Shown here piece after piece: positions 1,086 to 6,270 of a DNA stretch of 6,270 nucleotides (its first letter is position 1; each line of letters begins with the position of its first letter). The stretch comes from an uncultured Lachnospiraceae bacterium (GTDB lineage Bacteria; Bacillota_A; Clostridia; Lachnospirales; Lachnospiraceae). The notes under the pieces are model-generated. The model saw only the letters and a list, made by a program, of their open reading frames with translations, was not told the DNA's origin and did not search any database. The position numbers and the translations under genes are program-made. The stretch is taken from positions 1 to 6,270 of the forward strand of contig CACZQE010000349.1 of the NCBI GenBank assembly GCA_902783205.1, written 5' to 3'.

Positions 1086-1158
<73 letters not shown>

Positions 1159-1618: not shown

Positions 1619-1897
1619 CTATTTCGCGTACCGGTTCATCCAGTCGCCAAGTTTTGAAAAAGCTTCCTTGTTCAAACTGTAATGGATCCATTTACCTGAT
1701 TTTCTGGCGTTAACAACACCTGCCCGCATCAGCAGTTTCATGTGGTGTGACAATGTGGACTGCCCGAAGTCCATGACTGCAAGAAGCTCTGTGGCGTTAT
1801 ACTCTTTCTCCCGCAGCAGATCCACGATCCGCAGACGGTTTTCATCAGACATCGCCTTCAATACCCTTGCATGAATAACATACTCTTTATTATCCAT
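1619..1897 (-). CDS. ArsR-family winged-helix transcriptional repressor, cysteine-free
   Basis: The 92-residue protein is about the usual length for a single-domain ArsR/SmtB regulator. The fold is recognisable by VLKAMSDENRLRIVDLL at about 13-28, the helix-turn-helix ATELLAVMDFGQSTLSHHMK at 35-54, and the wing AGVVNARKSGKWIHYSL at 59-75. Classic metal sensors of the family carry a cysteine pair in the recognition region (ELCVC); here the equivalent is ELLAVMD and the protein has no cysteine at all. It is thus not a thiol-based arsenic or cadmium sensor, and I see no clear histidine/aspartate zinc site at the C-terminus. It may respond to another cue through a different surface. The start at 1897 has GAGAGG about 4-5 bases upstream. 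It follows the serine acetyltransferase gene by 65 bases, a gap holding an inverted repeat that could be its own operator. Confidence 0.92.
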   Translation of the reverse strand: MDNKEYVIHARVLKAMSDENRLRIVDLLREKEYNATELLAVMDFGQSTLSHHMKLLMRAGVVNARKSGKWIHYSLNKEAFSKLGDWMNRYAK

Positions 1898-1929
1898 AAT
1901 TCCTCTCCCGAATGACGTGTGTTTTTAAT

Positions 1930-1962
1930 GGGTTTCCGCGTGGTTAAAGGGTTTTCACGCGG
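1930..1962. repeat. Inverted/direct repeat upstream of the ArsR-family gene, possible operator
   Basis: The arms CCGCGTG (1936-1942) and CACGCGG (1956-1962) form a perfect 7-base inverted repeat around a 13-base loop. The same stretch is also an imperfect direct repeat, GGGTTTCCGCGTGG (1930-1943) and GGGTTTTCACGCGG (1949-1962). It starts at the base next to the serine acetyltransferase stop codon. Neither strand has a T-run after it, so it is a poor terminator. An operator for the adjacent repressor or an mRNA 3'-end hairpin are the likelier roles. Confidence 0.4.
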
Positions 1963-2913
1963 TCAGATTACCCAGATTCCTTCTTCGTTTTCTATGCTCT
2001 GCAGCTCTATCGTCTTATCCGATCCCTTAAACTGGAGTTCAGGATTCTTAACTACTACCTTGGTGTAGGCCGGTACAGACTTGGTCACAAAGGCGCCGCC
2101 CGATACAATGGCTCCTTCGCCGATCACTGTTTCGCCGCCCAGAATGGAGGCGCCGGAATATACCGTAACATTATCTCTGATCGTGGGATGTCTCTTCTTG
2201 CCCCGGAGCTGCTGTCCGGCACGGGTGGAAAGAGCGCCCAGAGTAACACCCTGGTAGAGCTTGACATGATTTCCGATCTCCGTTGTCTCACCGATTACTA
2301 CGCCCGTACCGTGATCGATGAAGAAATATTCGCCGATGGTGGCGCCGGAGTTGATATCAATACCGGTCCTGCTGTGAGCGTACTCAGTCATGATCCTGGG
2401 CAGAAGAGGTACCTCCTGCACGTAGAATTCATGGGCGATCCTGTATACAAAGACCGCAAAAAGTCCGGGATAGGAGAAAACCACATCCTCCCTGCTCTTG
2501 GCAGCCGGGTCTCCGTCATACCCTGCCTCCACGTCTTTCAGAAGCATCTCATAAACGTGGGGGAGCCTGCGGAAGAAGTTGGCACAGATTTCCTCTGCCC
2601 GATCTTCAAGCTTGTCCCCGGAGGCATCATCGCCCGCCCGGAATGCAAGGGCCGCCCGGACCTGGCCTTTCAGCTTCACATAGATATGGCTCAGCTGGTC
2701 GCCGACAAAGAAATCCGGCGGTACCACTGTAATATTTTCGTCACCGAAAAATCCCGGAAACATTACCCGGCGAAGGTCTTTAAGAATCTCTATGGTCACT
2801 CCCCGCGAAGGCAGATTTTTACTTCCTTTGGATACAATATAGGGAGTATCCAGGATCTGCCCGGTGATACCGGCGGAGGCATCGAGAATCAGTTTTCTCA
2901 TATAATCCTTCAT
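1963..2913 (-). CDS. cysE: Serine O-acetyltransferase, long form (CysE-type)
   Basis: The enzyme transfers acetyl from acetyl-CoA to L-serine, giving O-acetylserine, the precursor of cysteine. The C-terminal part (about 180-290) is a left-handed beta-helix of hexapeptide repeats. D186 (GIDIN) and H201 (IDHGTGVVIGET), 15 residues apart, match the E. coli CysE D143/H158 catalytic pair, and H242 (KKRHP) matches H193; the loop between H201 and H242 is 6 residues longer. The N-terminal helical region of about 180 residues is longer than in E. coli, giving 316 residues in total, as in long-form bacterial homologues. The protein ends in WVI; a C-terminal isoleucine is what inserts into the cysteine synthase active site in known complexes, so that interaction may be retained. 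The start at 2913 is supported by AGGAGGG about 8 bases upstream, which sits right after the stop of the cysteine-rich gene 15 bases away. It is probably in the same operon as the TerY-like cassette. Confidence 0.95.
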   Translation of the reverse strand: MKDYMRKLILDASAGITGQILDTPYIVSKGSKNLPSRGVTIEILKDLRRVMFPGFFGDENITVVPPDFFVGDQLSHIYVKLKGQVRAALAFRAGDDASGDKLEDRAEEICANFFRRLPHVYEMLLKDVEAGYDGDPAAKSREDVVFSYPGLFAVFVYRIAHEFYVQEVPLLPRIMTEYAHSRTGIDINSGATIGEYFFIDHGTGVVIGETTEIGNHVKLYQGVTLGALSTRAGQQLRGKKRHPTIRDNVTVYSGASILGGETVIGEGAIVSGGAFVTKSVPAYTKVVVKNPELQFKGSDKTIELQSIENEEGIWVI

Positions 2914-2928: not shown

Positions 2929-3279
2929 TCAGAATCCGCCGCCCGTAACATCCATGGCGGAATTGTCCGCGCTGGCTTTTCCTGATGCGCCGCACCAGTT
3001 GCAAACGATCTTTTCGGATCCGTCATAGCAGCTGACCTTGCCGCAGCTGCCGCATACAAAACATTTGCGGGCTCCGCAGTAAGGGCATCCCGGGTACTCT
3101 TCTTCTGTCAGAAAAGTTCCGCTGAAAGTAGTTTTGTCGAACTGTTCCTTTTTGGCCACATCCTCCTTCAGAGGAAAAGCCCAGGTACGGATCCAGTCCA
3201 TGTCCCGCTTTTCGATCCGGATTCCATATAATTGACTGTCCCTGCACTTGGCAAGGATCACACTGGCTTCTTTTTTCAT
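2929..3279 (-). CDS. Cysteine-rich zinc-ribbon protein resembling a stand-alone TerY-C metal-binding domain
   Basis: This 116-residue protein has an N-terminal part (1-60) with YGIRIEKRDMDWIRTWAFPL at 18-37 and a cysteine-rich part with CPYC (65-68), C73, CGSC (76-79), C84 and CNWC (93-96), followed by a Gly/Ser-rich tail. The spacing fits two metal-binding knuckle pairs. The combination of a W(V/I)RTWAF segment with YPGCPYCG resembles the TerY-C domain, described as a metal-binding domain in Ter-linked operons and often fused to TerY-type vWA proteins. That match is from memory, not a search. Here it is a separate gene, 28 bases after the PP2C gene and two genes after the vWA gene. The start at 3279 has AGGAGGAG (3288-3295) about 8 bases upstream. 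A metal sensor or structural partner for the phosphorylation cassette is the best guess; a generic zinc ribbon is the alternative. Confidence 0.85.
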   Translation of the reverse strand: MKKEASVILAKCRDSQLYGIRIEKRDMDWIRTWAFPLKEDVAKKEQFDKTTFSGTFLTEEEYPGCPYCGARKCFVCGSCGKVSCYDGSEKIVCNWCGASGKASADNSAMDVTGGGF

Positions 3280-3307: not shown

Positions 3308-4102
3308 CTAAGTCCGGTATATCATAGCGATGGAAATGTCATCCCCGCTTCCGTCCTTTGTTCTTTTCGCAAAATTCCTTTCCAGACTTTTCTTTGCCTG
3401 ATCAGGGTCATCCAGAAGCTTCAGGATCAGCCCGTGATATTTAAGAAAATCTTCCTCGCTGGCAAAGGATTTAAAGAGGCCGTCCGTCGATACGAACATG
3501 CCCCGGATCTCCTCTTTTGTGTACCAGTGCTCGAAAAAGTGGAGAGCGTTGGTATTACACAGAGAAGATGTATAATTGGCATGGGCATTGGAATCTTCCA
3601 CAGGGATGAAAAGGCGGTTTTTATCATCCAGAACGACAAGCCCGCCGTCTCCCAGCACTATCCCGAAGGAAAACTCCTCACCCATGACAGCCGCCAGAAC
3701 GGTACTGCCATAGATGACCGGCACGGATCCCGGTTTCTTTTCCTCTTTCAGGATCTCCTTTTCCTCATCCGTCAGAGGATTCTCCCGATGGAACTCCTCC
3801 ACCGCTTCCCTCCATTTCATGAGGATCTGTTTCTCCATCTGGATCAGGATAAATTCCGGATGGCGCAGAAACTGCTTGCGGAAGTCAGGTCTTGCCATAT
3901 ATTTGGATATGAGCCCTGCCGTGATCTTAACGGCGATGCGCGATCCGGCGTCGCTTCTGAAATGCCTCCTGCTTCCGTGCCCGTCCGCCACGACGGCAAT
4001 GGCAAAATCATCTCCGTCAAACACGCCGGAACTGTCCTGGCACACTATGCCCTTTTCTATATGTGAGAATCCGGTCACTGTCGTGTTGATTCCCTGAATC
4101 AT
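3308..4102 (-). CDS. PP2C-family Ser/Thr protein phosphatase
   Basis: The protein should remove phosphate from Ser/Thr of cytoplasmic targets using two metal ions. Counting from the chosen start (264 residues), PP2C motifs are in order: CQDSSG near 21-26, VVADGHGS at 37-44 with metal-binding D40 and G41, YGSTVLAAV at 131-139, LGDG at 150-153, FVSTDGLF at 203-210 with metal-binding D207, and GSGDDISIAMIY at 251-262 with D254/D255. All core metal ligands appear intact, so it is probably active. The ATG at 4111 is possible, but its only Shine-Dalgarno (GAGGG, 4116-4112) directly touches it; the same site is 9 bases from the ATG at 4102, which I prefer. The upstream vWA gene stops at 4105, two bases before this start, so translation is likely coupled. 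Beside a vWA protein and kinase-like genes it forms the TerY-P triad arrangement. Confidence 0.95.
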   Translation of the reverse strand: MIQGINTTVTGFSHIEKGIVCQDSSGVFDGDDFAIAVVADGHGSRRHFRSDAGSRIAVKITAGLISKYMARPDFRKQFLRHPEFILIQMEKQILMKWREAVEEFHRENPLTDEEKEILKEEKKPGSVPVIYGSTVLAAVMGEEFSFGIVLGDGGLVVLDDKNRLFIPVEDSNAHANYTSSLCNTNALHFFEHWYTKEEIRGMFVSTDGLFKSFASEEDFLKYHGLILKLLDDPDQAKKSLERNFAKRTKDGSGDDISIAMIYRT

Positions 4103-4104
4103 TT

Positions 4105-4905
4105 TTACCATCCCTCGTCAAAATCGATGTCAAGATCGTCAAGGCTTTCTATATCCTCCAGGATATCTTCTTTCATCTCCTGGACCGCCTCGATCATCTG
4201 TGCTTTTTTAGTCCCGGCAACTTCCTCCTCCGTACGCTCCCTGGACGTATCCGTCAGCACCATACTGGAAGAACCGATTTTGGAAGATGTCACGGCAATC
4301 TCGCGGACCAGTTTCTTTAACATGTCAGCGCCGAAAGCCTGAAGGACCAGTTCATCATCATCCGTAAACTCTTTTAAGACATCCAGATCCACGCTTGATC
4401 CGATCGCCAGAGCCACTTTAAGGCCGTAGCGGAACCAGCGGTTCTTCTTGAGCTGCTCAATTCCCTTCCTGTAATTGTCCGTCGGATAACCGTCCGTGAT
4501 CAGAAAGATTACGGGAGCGAAGGACAGGGACGGAGCCTTTAAGAAGCTGTGCCTTGACAGCTTTGAAGCAAGTTCTTCGCATGCTTCCCCCAGATCCGTT
4601 ACACCGTCTGCCTGCAGAGGAGTCCAGGTCTGGTACTCCTCGATCCGCACCGGCTCGGGTGTGATCCACTCAAAACCGGATGAGAAGGACATGACCGCAA
4701 TCTTCACGTCTGTTCCTGCTTCTCCCACGCCGATCAGCTCCGGAAGAATATCGGACATGACACTGTTCAGGGACTCCAGTTTACTTCCCTCCATGCTGCT
4801 GGAGGTATCAACAAGGAAAAACAGCACCATACTCTTTTTGGCGGGCGGCATGGTATCCAGAGGATCAAATGTGTCAGCCGCCGGTATACTACTCTGCTTG
4901 CTCAT
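4105..4905 (-). CDS. TerY-like von Willebrand factor A domain protein
   Basis: Counting from the chosen start (266 residues), the vWA domain spans about 25-205. The metal-ion-dependent adhesion site is complete: DTSSS at 33-37 (DxSxS), T103 in GVTDLGEA, and D138 in LITDGYPTD. No signal peptide or membrane segment is seen, so it is cytoplasmic like TerY. After the vWA fold comes a charged tail (about 215-266) with a predicted helix at 235-253 and a very acidic end, LDDLDIDFDEGW. There is no cysteine-rich C-terminal domain; the related domain seems to be encoded by the gene at 2929-3279. A GTG start at 4920 would add five residues but lacks a ribosome site; the ATG at 4905 has GAGGA (4918-4914) 8 bases upstream. 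It overlaps the upstream pseudokinase-like gene by 17 bases. It probably scaffolds substrates or partners for the kinase and phosphatase. Confidence 0.95.
   Translation of the reverse strand: MSKQSSIPAADTFDPLDTMPPAKKSMVLFFLVDTSSSMEGSKLESLNSVMSDILPELIGVGEAGTDVKIAVMSFSSGFEWITPEPVRIEEYQTWTPLQADGVTDLGEACEELASKLSRHSFLKAPSLSFAPVIFLITDGYPTDNYRKGIEQLKKNRWFRYGLKVALAIGSSVDLDVLKEFTDDDELVLQAFGADMLKKLVREIAVTSSKIGSSSMVLTDTSRERTEEEVAGTKKAQMIEAVQEMKEDILEDIESLDDLDIDFDEGW
4112..4116 (-). promoter_or_regulatory. Ribosome binding site deciding the PP2C start
   Basis: GAGGG on the minus strand directly touches the ATG at 4111 but is 9 bases from the ATG at 4102. Since a ribosome needs several bases between site and start codon, the shorter protein starting at 4102 is favoured. 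The site lies inside the end of the vWA coding region. Confidence 0.6.
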
Positions 4906-6040
4906 GGTTATCGTCCTCACTTTCTTCAGAAAAAGCTGTCATCCGGAGAGTCCAGTCTTCACCCCTCTCAAAGCGCAGGGTCATGCCGCTCCAGATGGGA
5001 ATTGCCATTCCTTTTGTGATCTCTTTTGTCTCTCTATTGGGGAAAAATCCCCTCCATACGCCGTCACTTACATTCTTTATTCCAAACAGGCCTTTACGGT
5101 TGCGGTTTTCCACCACCTGACCGGTCACTGTTTCAGTATCAAAGGCATTCAGGCCGGTCTGACACTCATAAAGCCTGGCTCCCGCCGACAGTAGAATCCA
5201 GTCCAGACCGTCAGACATGGGATAGTAGACTTTGCCGCATCCCGGGCAGACCCTGGTTCCGTCCTCCTTGGAGATCAGCTTTGCCGAATAGCCGTGGAAG
5301 CCGCAGCTGCAGTCCTTGTAATCCATCATCAGGCGGACGACACTCTGTTTCCAGTCGATCTCCGTCGGGCGCAGATGGATCAGGCTGCCTCCTGAAAGAA
5401 AGGCTTTCTGAAACATTTTGCCCAGATCCTCCGGGTACTCCTTCCAGAAGCGGATCAGCTTGTCCTGGATCCCCGGCACCGGCGAATTGTCATGGGAGCC
5501 CGGTTCCATGCAGAAAATCCCTTCTCTGGCACGGAAGAGTTCCTTTTCGGCCGGGGAGAGGAAACAGTGATTTACCATCAGTTTTCCTTCAAAAGGCGAC
5601 CCTGTATGGTAAAAGTATTCAAAAAGAAATACCGCCATGAAATACCAGTCTGTCTCCACAGTCCAGCAGGCAGTTTCCCTGCCTTCCTCATCGCCGCTCA
5701 AAGCCTCAACCAGCTCCGGAGCCAGGAACTCGTTCATGACCGCCGCATCCGGCTCAACTGCCGTCCCTTCGGCCGCCACAGCCGCATCTGCCCTGACGTG
5801 CAGATCGCCGCATGCCGGATCAAAATAAAAGGCATCCGGATCAGACGATCCGTAAACCATTCCCCGGCTGTGCAGGTCCGAGAAGTAGCCGGCAAAATGC
5901 ATGGCCCCTTTGTGGAGGGCATCCATGGAGGAAAAATACACTGCCTTTGCCCTGACCTGGCCTTCCGGCCCGGGCAGGACGGCTGCCTCCTCGCAGATTT
6001 CCCGCAGGCAGACCCACTCTTTTCCGTCTATTACTTTCAT
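4889..6040 (-). CDS. Degenerate TerY-triad kinase paralogue: pseudokinase C-lobe, zinc ribbon and C-terminal beta-rich domain
   Basis: This 383-residue protein keeps landmarks of a kinase C-lobe: LHSRGMVYG (56-64) where the catalytic loop starts, FYFDPACGDL (71-80), FLAPEL with the APE motif (105-110), TDWYFMAVFLFEYF with the helix-F aspartate D131 (130-143), PFEGK (149-153) and SPVPG (186-190). The catalytic residues are gone: the HRD-like position reads YGSSDPDA, with no catalytic Asp or partner Asn, and the DFG-like position reads VRADAA. Only about 55 residues precede this point, too few for an N-lobe with the ATP-binding lysine. It is therefore probably a pseudokinase. A zinc ribbon follows (C244, C246, C265, C268), then a domain at 291-367 that is about 40% identical to the end of the gene upstream, and an acidic tail. 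The ATG overlaps the upstream stop as ATGA, with AGGGGG 11 bases before it. A regulatory partner of an active kinase is the likely role. The gene has no frameshift, so it is a maintained protein. Confidence 0.85.
   Translation of the reverse strand: MKVIDGKEWVCLREICEEAAVLPGPEGQVRAKAVYFSSMDALHKGAMHFAGYFSDLHSRGMVYGSSDPDAFYFDPACGDLHVRADAAVAAEGTAVEPDAAVMNEFLAPELVEALSGDEEGRETACWTVETDWYFMAVFLFEYFYHTGSPFEGKLMVNHCFLSPAEKELFRAREGIFCMEPGSHDNSPVPGIQDKLIRFWKEYPEDLGKMFQKAFLSGGSLIHLRPTEIDWKQSVVRLMMDYKDCSCGFHGYSAKLISKEDGTRVCPGCGKVYYPMSDGLDWILLSAGARLYECQTGLNAFDTETVTGQVVENRNRKGLFGIKNVSDGVWRGFFPNRETKEITKGMAIPIWSGMTLRFERGEDWTLRMTAFSEESEDDNHEQAE
4914..4918 (-). promoter_or_regulatory. Ribosome binding site deciding the vWA start
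   Basis: GAGGA on the minus strand is 8 bases upstream of the ATG at 4905 and overlaps the in-frame GTG at 4920, which has no site of its own. The ATG is thus the likely start. The site lies within the last codons of the pseudokinase-like gene. Confidence 0.65.
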
Positions 6041-6270
6041 ATGCAGATCTTCCCCCTGACACCGTCATCAAACTCTATGGAAAGTTCTTTCCAGACCGGA
6101 ACCGTTTTCCCGGGGCCTACTTCCCTGACACTCTGATCGGGAAAAACCGCTTTCCACACCTTGCGCGACTGATTCCTGATGCCGAAGAGGCCTCTCTTGA
6201 CACGGTTCTCGATCACCACGCCGGTGACAGTTTCAAAATCATCGTTATTTCTTTCGGTCAGGCACCGGTA
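6037..6270 (-). CDS. Partial gene: C-terminal domain of a kinase-like paralogue (N-terminal part beyond the window)
   Basis: Only the last 77 residues are visible; the frame stays open to the window edge at 6270. The segment contains ETVTGVVIENR and KRGLFGIRN, then VW, FP, PVW and an IEF strand, and aligns without gaps to residues 291-367 of the next gene, with about 31 of 77 positions identical by eye. In TerY-type triads the kinase carries such a C-terminal region after a zinc ribbon, so I infer this is the end of the cassette's full kinase. The kinase domain itself is not in view. The TGA stop overlaps the next start as ATGA (6040-6037), a classic sign of coupled translation. The operon promoter must lie beyond the window. 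Confidence 0.85.
   Translation of the reverse strand, partial: YRCLTERNNDDFETVTGVVIENRVKRGLFGIRNQSRKVWKAVFPDQSVREVGPGKTVPVWKELSIEFDDGVRGKICI

What the first reader, a model, noticed from the sequence alone, without database searches (positions are those of the whole stretch)
4889..6040. Kinase paralogue without N-lobe and without catalytic residues
C-lobe landmarks (LHSRG, APE, helix-F Asp, PFEGK, VPG) remain in order, but the catalytic loop reads YGSSDPDA, the DFG-like site reads VRADAA, and only about 55 residues come before it. The frame is intact over 383 codons and tightly coupled to its neighbours, so it looks like a selected pseudokinase rather than decay. It could regulate the active kinase, hold substrate, or bridge the vWA protein through its zinc ribbon.
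Basis: partly seen in the sequence, partly recalled or inferred. Interest (0 to 1): 0.75.

Follow-up and report, generated by a model that had tools for sequence, protein, structure and literature searches.

The report
Half-kinase pseudokinase in duplicated TerY-P operon
A lineage of Eubacterium-like bacteria keeps, next to a normal protein kinase, a second copy that has lost the whole upper half of the kinase and its catalytic residues yet is preserved by selection, which points to a binding or control job rather than an enzyme.

The parts
4889..6040 (-). C-lobe-only pseudokinase (PSK), 383 aa
5942..6040 (-). res 1-33: equivalent of kinase hinge/alphaD segment; start of the protein, no N-lobe before it
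   Evidence: profile alignment from kinase res 92; CRAF 421-614 match from model res 4; in-frame stop 9 codons upstream
5321..5941 (-). res 34-240: kinase C-lobe (alphaE onward)
   Evidence: Foldseek/VIA match to kinase C-lobes
5831..5854 (-). degenerate catalytic loop YGSSDPDA (L001 kinase: YQDLNDGG)
5780..5797 (-). degenerate DFG site VRADAA (L001 kinase: VCDCDN)
5714..5722 (-). APE motif kept
5648..5650 (-). helix-F Asp (D131) kept
5531..5620 (-). res 141-170, end of alphaF to alphaG: most conserved part, 16 of 51 PSK-specific fixed residues
5225..5320 (-). zinc ribbon (C244, C246, C265, C268 invariant in 49 PSKs), shared with the kinase
4943..5224 (-). C-terminal beta domain, shared with the kinase; no Pfam model at cut-off
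6037..6270 (-). 3' end (77 aa + stop) of the upstream kinase gene; rest outside window
4105..4920 (-). vWA protein (vWA2), MIDAS start DTSSS, C-terminal DEGW
   Evidence: PF00092 E 6.1e-10
3308..4111 (-). PP2C phosphatase
   Evidence: PF13672 E 9.2e-38
2929..3279 (-). TerY_C zinc-ribbon protein
   Evidence: PF15616 E 7.6e-10

Best explanation
SHOWN by sequence and models: the protein is a pseudokinase consisting only of a kinase C-lobe (from the hinge on) plus the kinase's own C-terminal zinc ribbon and beta domain. It belongs to one clade found so far in one genus, where the kinase and vWA genes of a TerY-P-type operon are both duplicated and one kinase copy lacks the N-lobe and the catalytic residues. 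It is maintained by purifying selection. INFERRED mechanism: it cannot bind ATP or phosphorylate; it serves as a docking/regulatory subunit of the duplicated module. Its zinc ribbon/beta tail would be recognised like the kinase's own (probably by the paired vWA2 and/or PP2C). Its conserved alphaF-alphaG face, a usual protein-docking surface of kinases, would hold the partner kinase or the common substrate, so that the dead arm (PSK-vWA2) tunes phosphorylation by the live arm (kinase-vWA1) against PP2C.
For: Homology and fold. Full-length sister kinase with both lobes. Catalytic residues: VAIK Lys and aligned DFG Asp in 0 of 49 PSKs, HRD Asp in 2 of 49, against 35 of 35 for each in distinct kinases; 22 of 22 aligned PSKs (window included) lack the N-lobe. 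PSK follows the kinase on 24 of 28 loci (window + 27 loci from 24 genomes); the other four are cut by contig ends. Single clade with 100/100 support, 15 PSKs. vWA1 and vWA2 are sister clades, 99/98. omega 0.119 against 0.050 for the kinase. Same 17 species: PSK identity is 0.49 and 0.28 in the catalytic and DFG/activation loops but 0.92 at alphaF-alphaG, and equal to the kinase in the beta domain (0.74 vs 0.73). PSK-specific fixed residues cluster at 141-170: 16 of 51, 0 of 5000 permutations reach it. AlphaG as a region with roles in protein-protein interaction: PMC12599244, section 6.
Against: No complex was predicted and no experiment exists; the partner is not identified. In the same species the kinase is also 0.98 conserved at alphaF-alphaG, so that conservation is not special to PSK; only the contrast within PSK is. 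PSK has a higher omega and lower identity than the four neighbours tested, which fits a looser role. dS is large across these species, so omega is approximate. The DFG stretch aligns loosely: 12 of 49 PSKs have an Asp two columns on.
Confidence: 0.55

Rival explanations
1. Scaffold for the vWA2-PP2C pair only: PSK keeps the zinc ribbon/beta tail as the vWA-binding part and its C-lobe merely as a folded base; no direct control of the kinase.
For: The beta domain and ribbon are about as conserved as in the kinase (0.74 vs 0.73; 0.63 vs 0.68). PSK is followed by vWA2 on 23 of 28 loci, the other five cut by contig ends. 52 of 53 vWA proteins read end in Trp, the exception being cut by its contig end: a possible shared docking tail.
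Against: The alphaF-alphaG face is the most conserved part (0.92), more than the tail (0.74).
Confidence: 0.22
2. Phospho-acceptor or decoy: PSK is the kinase's dedicated substrate or inhibitor, phosphorylated and reset by PP2C.
For: Kinase and PP2C in one operon; a kinase-like dead copy could occupy the kinase's dimer or substrate face (inference).
Against: The segment 76-105, where a regulatory phosphosite would be expected, is the least conserved (0.28). Phosphosites elsewhere were not tested.
Confidence: 0.13
3. Decaying pseudogene remnant.
For: Faster evolution than the neighbours (omega 0.119 vs 0.039-0.078; mean identity 0.63 vs 0.74-0.86).
Against: omega=1 rejected by 1239 log-likelihood units; 23 of 24 species keep it; invariant zinc ligands and C-lobe core. 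The one in-frame stop flagged among the 23 (G308) is the gene's own terminal stop.
Confidence: 0.03
4. Split-kinase complementation: PSK's C-lobe pairs with an N-lobe supplied by the neighbouring kinase.
For: Homology begins at the hinge.
Against: PSK lacks the catalytic and metal Asp, so even with an N-lobe it should not catalyse.
Confidence: 0.03

Closest known systems
TerY-P triad (TerY-like vWA + PP2C + Ser/Thr kinase with C-terminal zinc ribbon), as described in PMC11090510 (passages)
   Same: vWA, PP2C, kinase with zinc ribbon; plus a TerY_C ribbon protein
   Different: here vWA and kinase are duplicated and one kinase copy is a C-lobe-only pseudokinase; not described in the passages read
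Type III-A CoCoNuT TerY-P with duplicated vWA (PMC11090510, passages)
   Same: duplicated TerY-related vWA
   Different: there the internal vWA lacks the middle MIDAS Thr and an ATPase is inserted between the two; here both vWAs keep the DxSxS start of the MIDAS, and a kinase plus pseudokinase lie between
Human PLK5 (PMC6930252, passages)
   Same: pseudokinase consisting only of the kinase C-terminal domain
   Different: eukaryotic Polo-like kinase; mouse PLK5 is full-length, whereas here 22 of 22 aligned PSKs lack the N-lobe
Bacterial pseudokinase families ActPs1-3, GLW, CP1, DYD, DLHK (PMC12599244: abstract, section 4 part 1, section 6, passages; ActPs2 section not read)
   Same: bacterial Ser/Thr-kinase fold with catalytic residues lost in some or all members
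   Different: N-lobe motifs are still discussed or tabulated for the families read; about 60% of ActPs1 lack alphaG, the opposite of this family, which keeps alphaG and lacks the N-lobe

Membership tests
Protein kinase (complete domain) | two lobes | tested here: not met
   only C-lobe from the hinge on:
Protein-kinase superfamily by descent | C-lobe homologous to kinases | tested here: met
Pseudokinase | kinase homologue lacking VAIK Lys, HRD Asp and/or DFG Asp | tested here: met
   window protein lacks all three (no N-lobe; S65; A84)
Pseudokinase | no phosphotransfer activity | not testable with these tools
   needs biochemistry
TerY-P triad | vWA gene beside PP2C gene | tested here: met
TerY-P triad | Ser/Thr kinase with C-terminal zinc ribbon | tested here: met
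   L001 kinase: PF00069 E 5e-10, Cys 328/330/349/352; in the window only the last 77 aa of the kinase are seen
TerY-P triad | vWA is TerY-like | tested here: inconclusive
   only general VWA models hit; the separate TerY_C protein is met (PF15616)
TerY-P antiphage system | matches a PADLOC defence model | tested here: inconclusive
   PSK, vWA2 and ribbon no family, PP2C only BrxB at E 0.013; the L001 kinase hits mad6 and PD-T4-6 kinase models over parts
Known bacterial pseudokinase families (ActPs1-3, GLW, CP1, DYD, DLHK) | family-specific constraint patterns | not tested
   their profiles are not held here

The most novel reading that the evidence does not exclude
A two-armed bacterial kinase/phosphatase switch: gene duplication split one kinase-vWA unit into a live arm (kinase-vWA1) and a dead sensing/docking arm (half-kinase-vWA2), and the dead arm gates the live one through the alphaG face. 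It would be a bacterial counterpart of kinase/pseudokinase pairs, reached by deleting the whole N-lobe.
Probability: 0.3. Interest if true: 0.75.

Novelty: new variant of a known kind. Interest (0 to 1): 0.58.

Why it matters
It is a natural experiment on what a kinase fold is worth without catalysis: selection discarded the N-lobe and active site but kept the C-lobe docking face and the zinc-ribbon tail. Paired live and dead copies in one operon also give a tractable way into how TerY-P kinase/phosphatase/vWA modules work, which the passages read treat as hypothesis. Family models do not name the protein (nothing at cut-off in Pfam or NCBIfam, nothing in PADLOC), and the four listed homologues with a descriptive source name are called hypothetical protein.

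Tried and rejected
Hidden N-lobe or misplaced start: rejected. Decay: rejected. Virus or plasmid origin: none of the candidate stretches in viral contigs was confirmed; plasmids gave two distant matches at 24% identity, one annotated as a Ser/Thr kinase.

PSK outside the genus: samples of the family (9 of 299 with any match), class (6 of 391), phylum (8 of 398) and order (47 of 392) showed no second PSK-like match beside a kinase except in G001 itself. These are even samples, not full scans. The short order hit G1325 is cut by its contig end. G1258's two kinases both include the N-lobe. Not inspected: G670's second match (816-aa frame) and distant hits that align only from kinase res 63-139 on but lie in 485-514-aa frames (G996, G928, G893, G917, G1028, G1144, G1249).

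Outgroup operons that are not the simple triad: L074 (kinase-like gene alone), L104 (triad plus two more vWA genes), L105 (two kinases, no vWA or PP2C found), L106 (kinase-vWA, PP2C 3.5 kb on); in L071 the vWA lies 1.2 kb from the kinase.

Age of the duplication: the PSK stem is very long (2.81) and its attachment beside genus or Ruminococcus-type kinases is unresolved (87/57). The vWA tree carries a long-branch warning for an outgroup row. My first contrast of PSK and kinase at alphaF-alphaG mixed species sets; on matched species the kinase is equally conserved there, so I dropped that claim.

Papers: searches. None of the titles and abstract starts listed describes a C-lobe-only bacterial pseudokinase or one in a TerY-P operon; some searches listed only 15 of 80, 10 of 45, 10 of 88 and 8 of 150 papers. 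Anantharaman 2012, cited for TerY-P, was seen only as a citation; Kwon 2019 is not held. PMC4978471 (passages) describes TerY-P clusters in H. pylori and added nothing here.

Rows dropped: A2 holds 49 of the 120 listed homologues (169 found) after removing near-copies and lengths under 355; A3 lists one protein twice, so 35 distinct kinases, chosen from 120 listed of 1906.

Full report
What is there. On the minus strand the window carries, in order, the last 77 aa of a kinase gene (6037-6270), the finding (PSK, 4889-6040), a vWA protein, a PP2C phosphatase, a TerY_C zinc-ribbon protein, a serine O-acetyltransferase-like protein (best NCBIfam model cysE, E 1.7e-46, below its cut-off) and an ArsR-type regulator. 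Kinase stop and PSK start overlap as ATGA, and PSK overlaps the vWA gene by 32 nt (17 nt from the later vWA ATG). The PSK frame is open for only 8 codons before its ATG, so no N-lobe can be read upstream.

What is lost and what is kept. In 35 of 35 distinct kinases the VAIK Lys, HRD-type Asp (YQD) and DFG-type Asp (DCD) are present. In 49 PSKs the Lys and the aligned DFG Asp are absent from all and the catalytic Asp from 47; the DFG stretch aligns loosely, and 12 of 49 have an Asp two columns on. APE Glu, the helix-F Asp and the four zinc Cys are shared by at least 95% of both families. On the same 17 species PSK identity falls to 0.49 in the catalytic loop and 0.28 in the DFG/activation segment (kinase 0.98 and 0.91). 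It stays 0.92 from alphaF to alphaG (kinase 0.98), 0.63 in the zinc ribbon (0.68) and 0.74 in the beta domain (0.73). Residues fixed in PSK but different in the kinase cluster at 141-170: 16 of 51, 0 of 5000 permutations as high.

Selection and history. In the genus of the L001 genome 24 of 24 species match; 23 carry PSK (some cut by contig ends), and in the 24th the contig ends inside the kinase. PSK follows the kinase on 24 of 28 loci (window plus 27 loci from 24 genomes), and the other four are contig breaks. The one in-frame stop flagged (G308) is the gene's terminal stop. On 17 species without the window, omega is 0.119 for PSK, 0.050 kinase, 0.049 vWA1, 0.039 vWA2 and 0.078 PP2C; omega=1, on the fixed tree and kappa, costs PSK 1239 log-likelihood units (dS is high, so values are approximate). 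The 15 PSKs in the tree form one clade (100/100) on a long stem (2.81) whose exact attachment is unresolved; the window PSK groups inside it with L045 (100/99). vWA1 and vWA2 are sister clades (99/98; long-branch warning for an outgroup row), so kinase and vWA were both duplicated. Of eight loci from the wider family, seven carry a single kinase with vWA and PP2C and L074 a kinase-like gene alone. Of seven order-level loci, four show that triad and three differ: L104 has extra vWA genes, L105 two kinases without vWA or PP2C, L106 a distant PP2C. In samples of the family (9 of 299 with any match), class (6 of 391), phylum (8 of 398) and order (47 of 392), no PSK-like match beside a kinase was seen outside G001; some distant hits were not inspected.

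How it most likely works. Without N-lobe, Lys and metal Asp it should not bind ATP or transfer phosphate (inference from kinase chemistry). What selection keeps is the C-lobe protein-docking face and the zinc-ribbon/beta tail shared with the kinase. The simplest reading is a non-catalytic docking or regulatory subunit paired with vWA2 and acting on the adjacent kinase and PP2C. Partner and direction of control are not shown.

Against what is known. The operon is of the TerY-P type as described in PMC11090510 (passages), but with a duplicated vWA and kinase. Type III-A CoCoNuTs also have duplicated vWA, but with an ATPase between them. Bacterial pseudokinase families reviewed in PMC12599244 (abstract, section 4 part 1, section 6, passages) still have N-lobe motifs discussed or tabulated in the parts read; about 60% of ActPs1 lack alphaG, the reverse of this family. 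A C-lobe-only pseudokinase is known in human PLK5 (PMC6930252, passages). Hence: new variant of a known kind.

Noticed in passing
L001:6626-7981, genus kinases and other A3 kinases: All 35 distinct kinases in A3 have Gly where the HRDxxxxN Asn should be (YQDLNDGG or YQDLNGGG), while three more distant family kinases (L068-L070) keep Asn (YQDLNDGN). How these kinases hold the second metal is unclear.
   Followed up: partly
window 4108-4119 and vWA genes of the loci: 52 of 53 vWA proteins read end in Trp, the exception cut by its contig end (L045); the tail is DEGW in the genus and IQW, MVW, IDW or DVW in outgroups, usually after acidic residues: a possible docking tail.
   Followed up: partly
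window 1619-2913 and genus loci: Among recognised genes a serine O-acetyltransferase-like gene follows the TerY_C protein on 21 and an ArsR-type gene follows that on 20 of 28 loci, suggesting a link to cysteine supply and metal or oxyanion stress (inference).
   Followed up: partly
L001:2620-3787 and genus loci: A LytTR response regulator and a proteasome-assembly-chaperone-like gene lie upstream of vWA1 on 9 and 12 of 28 loci, many of which do not reach that far: the operon sits in a conserved chromosomal place.
   Followed up: no
L077 (G321:C253): G321 has a second vWA1-kinase pair on another contig that ends right after the kinase: true second copy or mixed assembly.
   Followed up: no
L104 (G1318:C27): A triad with two further vWA genes downstream: vWA multiplication also occurs outside the genus.
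   Followed up: no
window 1086-1158 (-): tRNA-Phe (gaa).
   Followed up: yes
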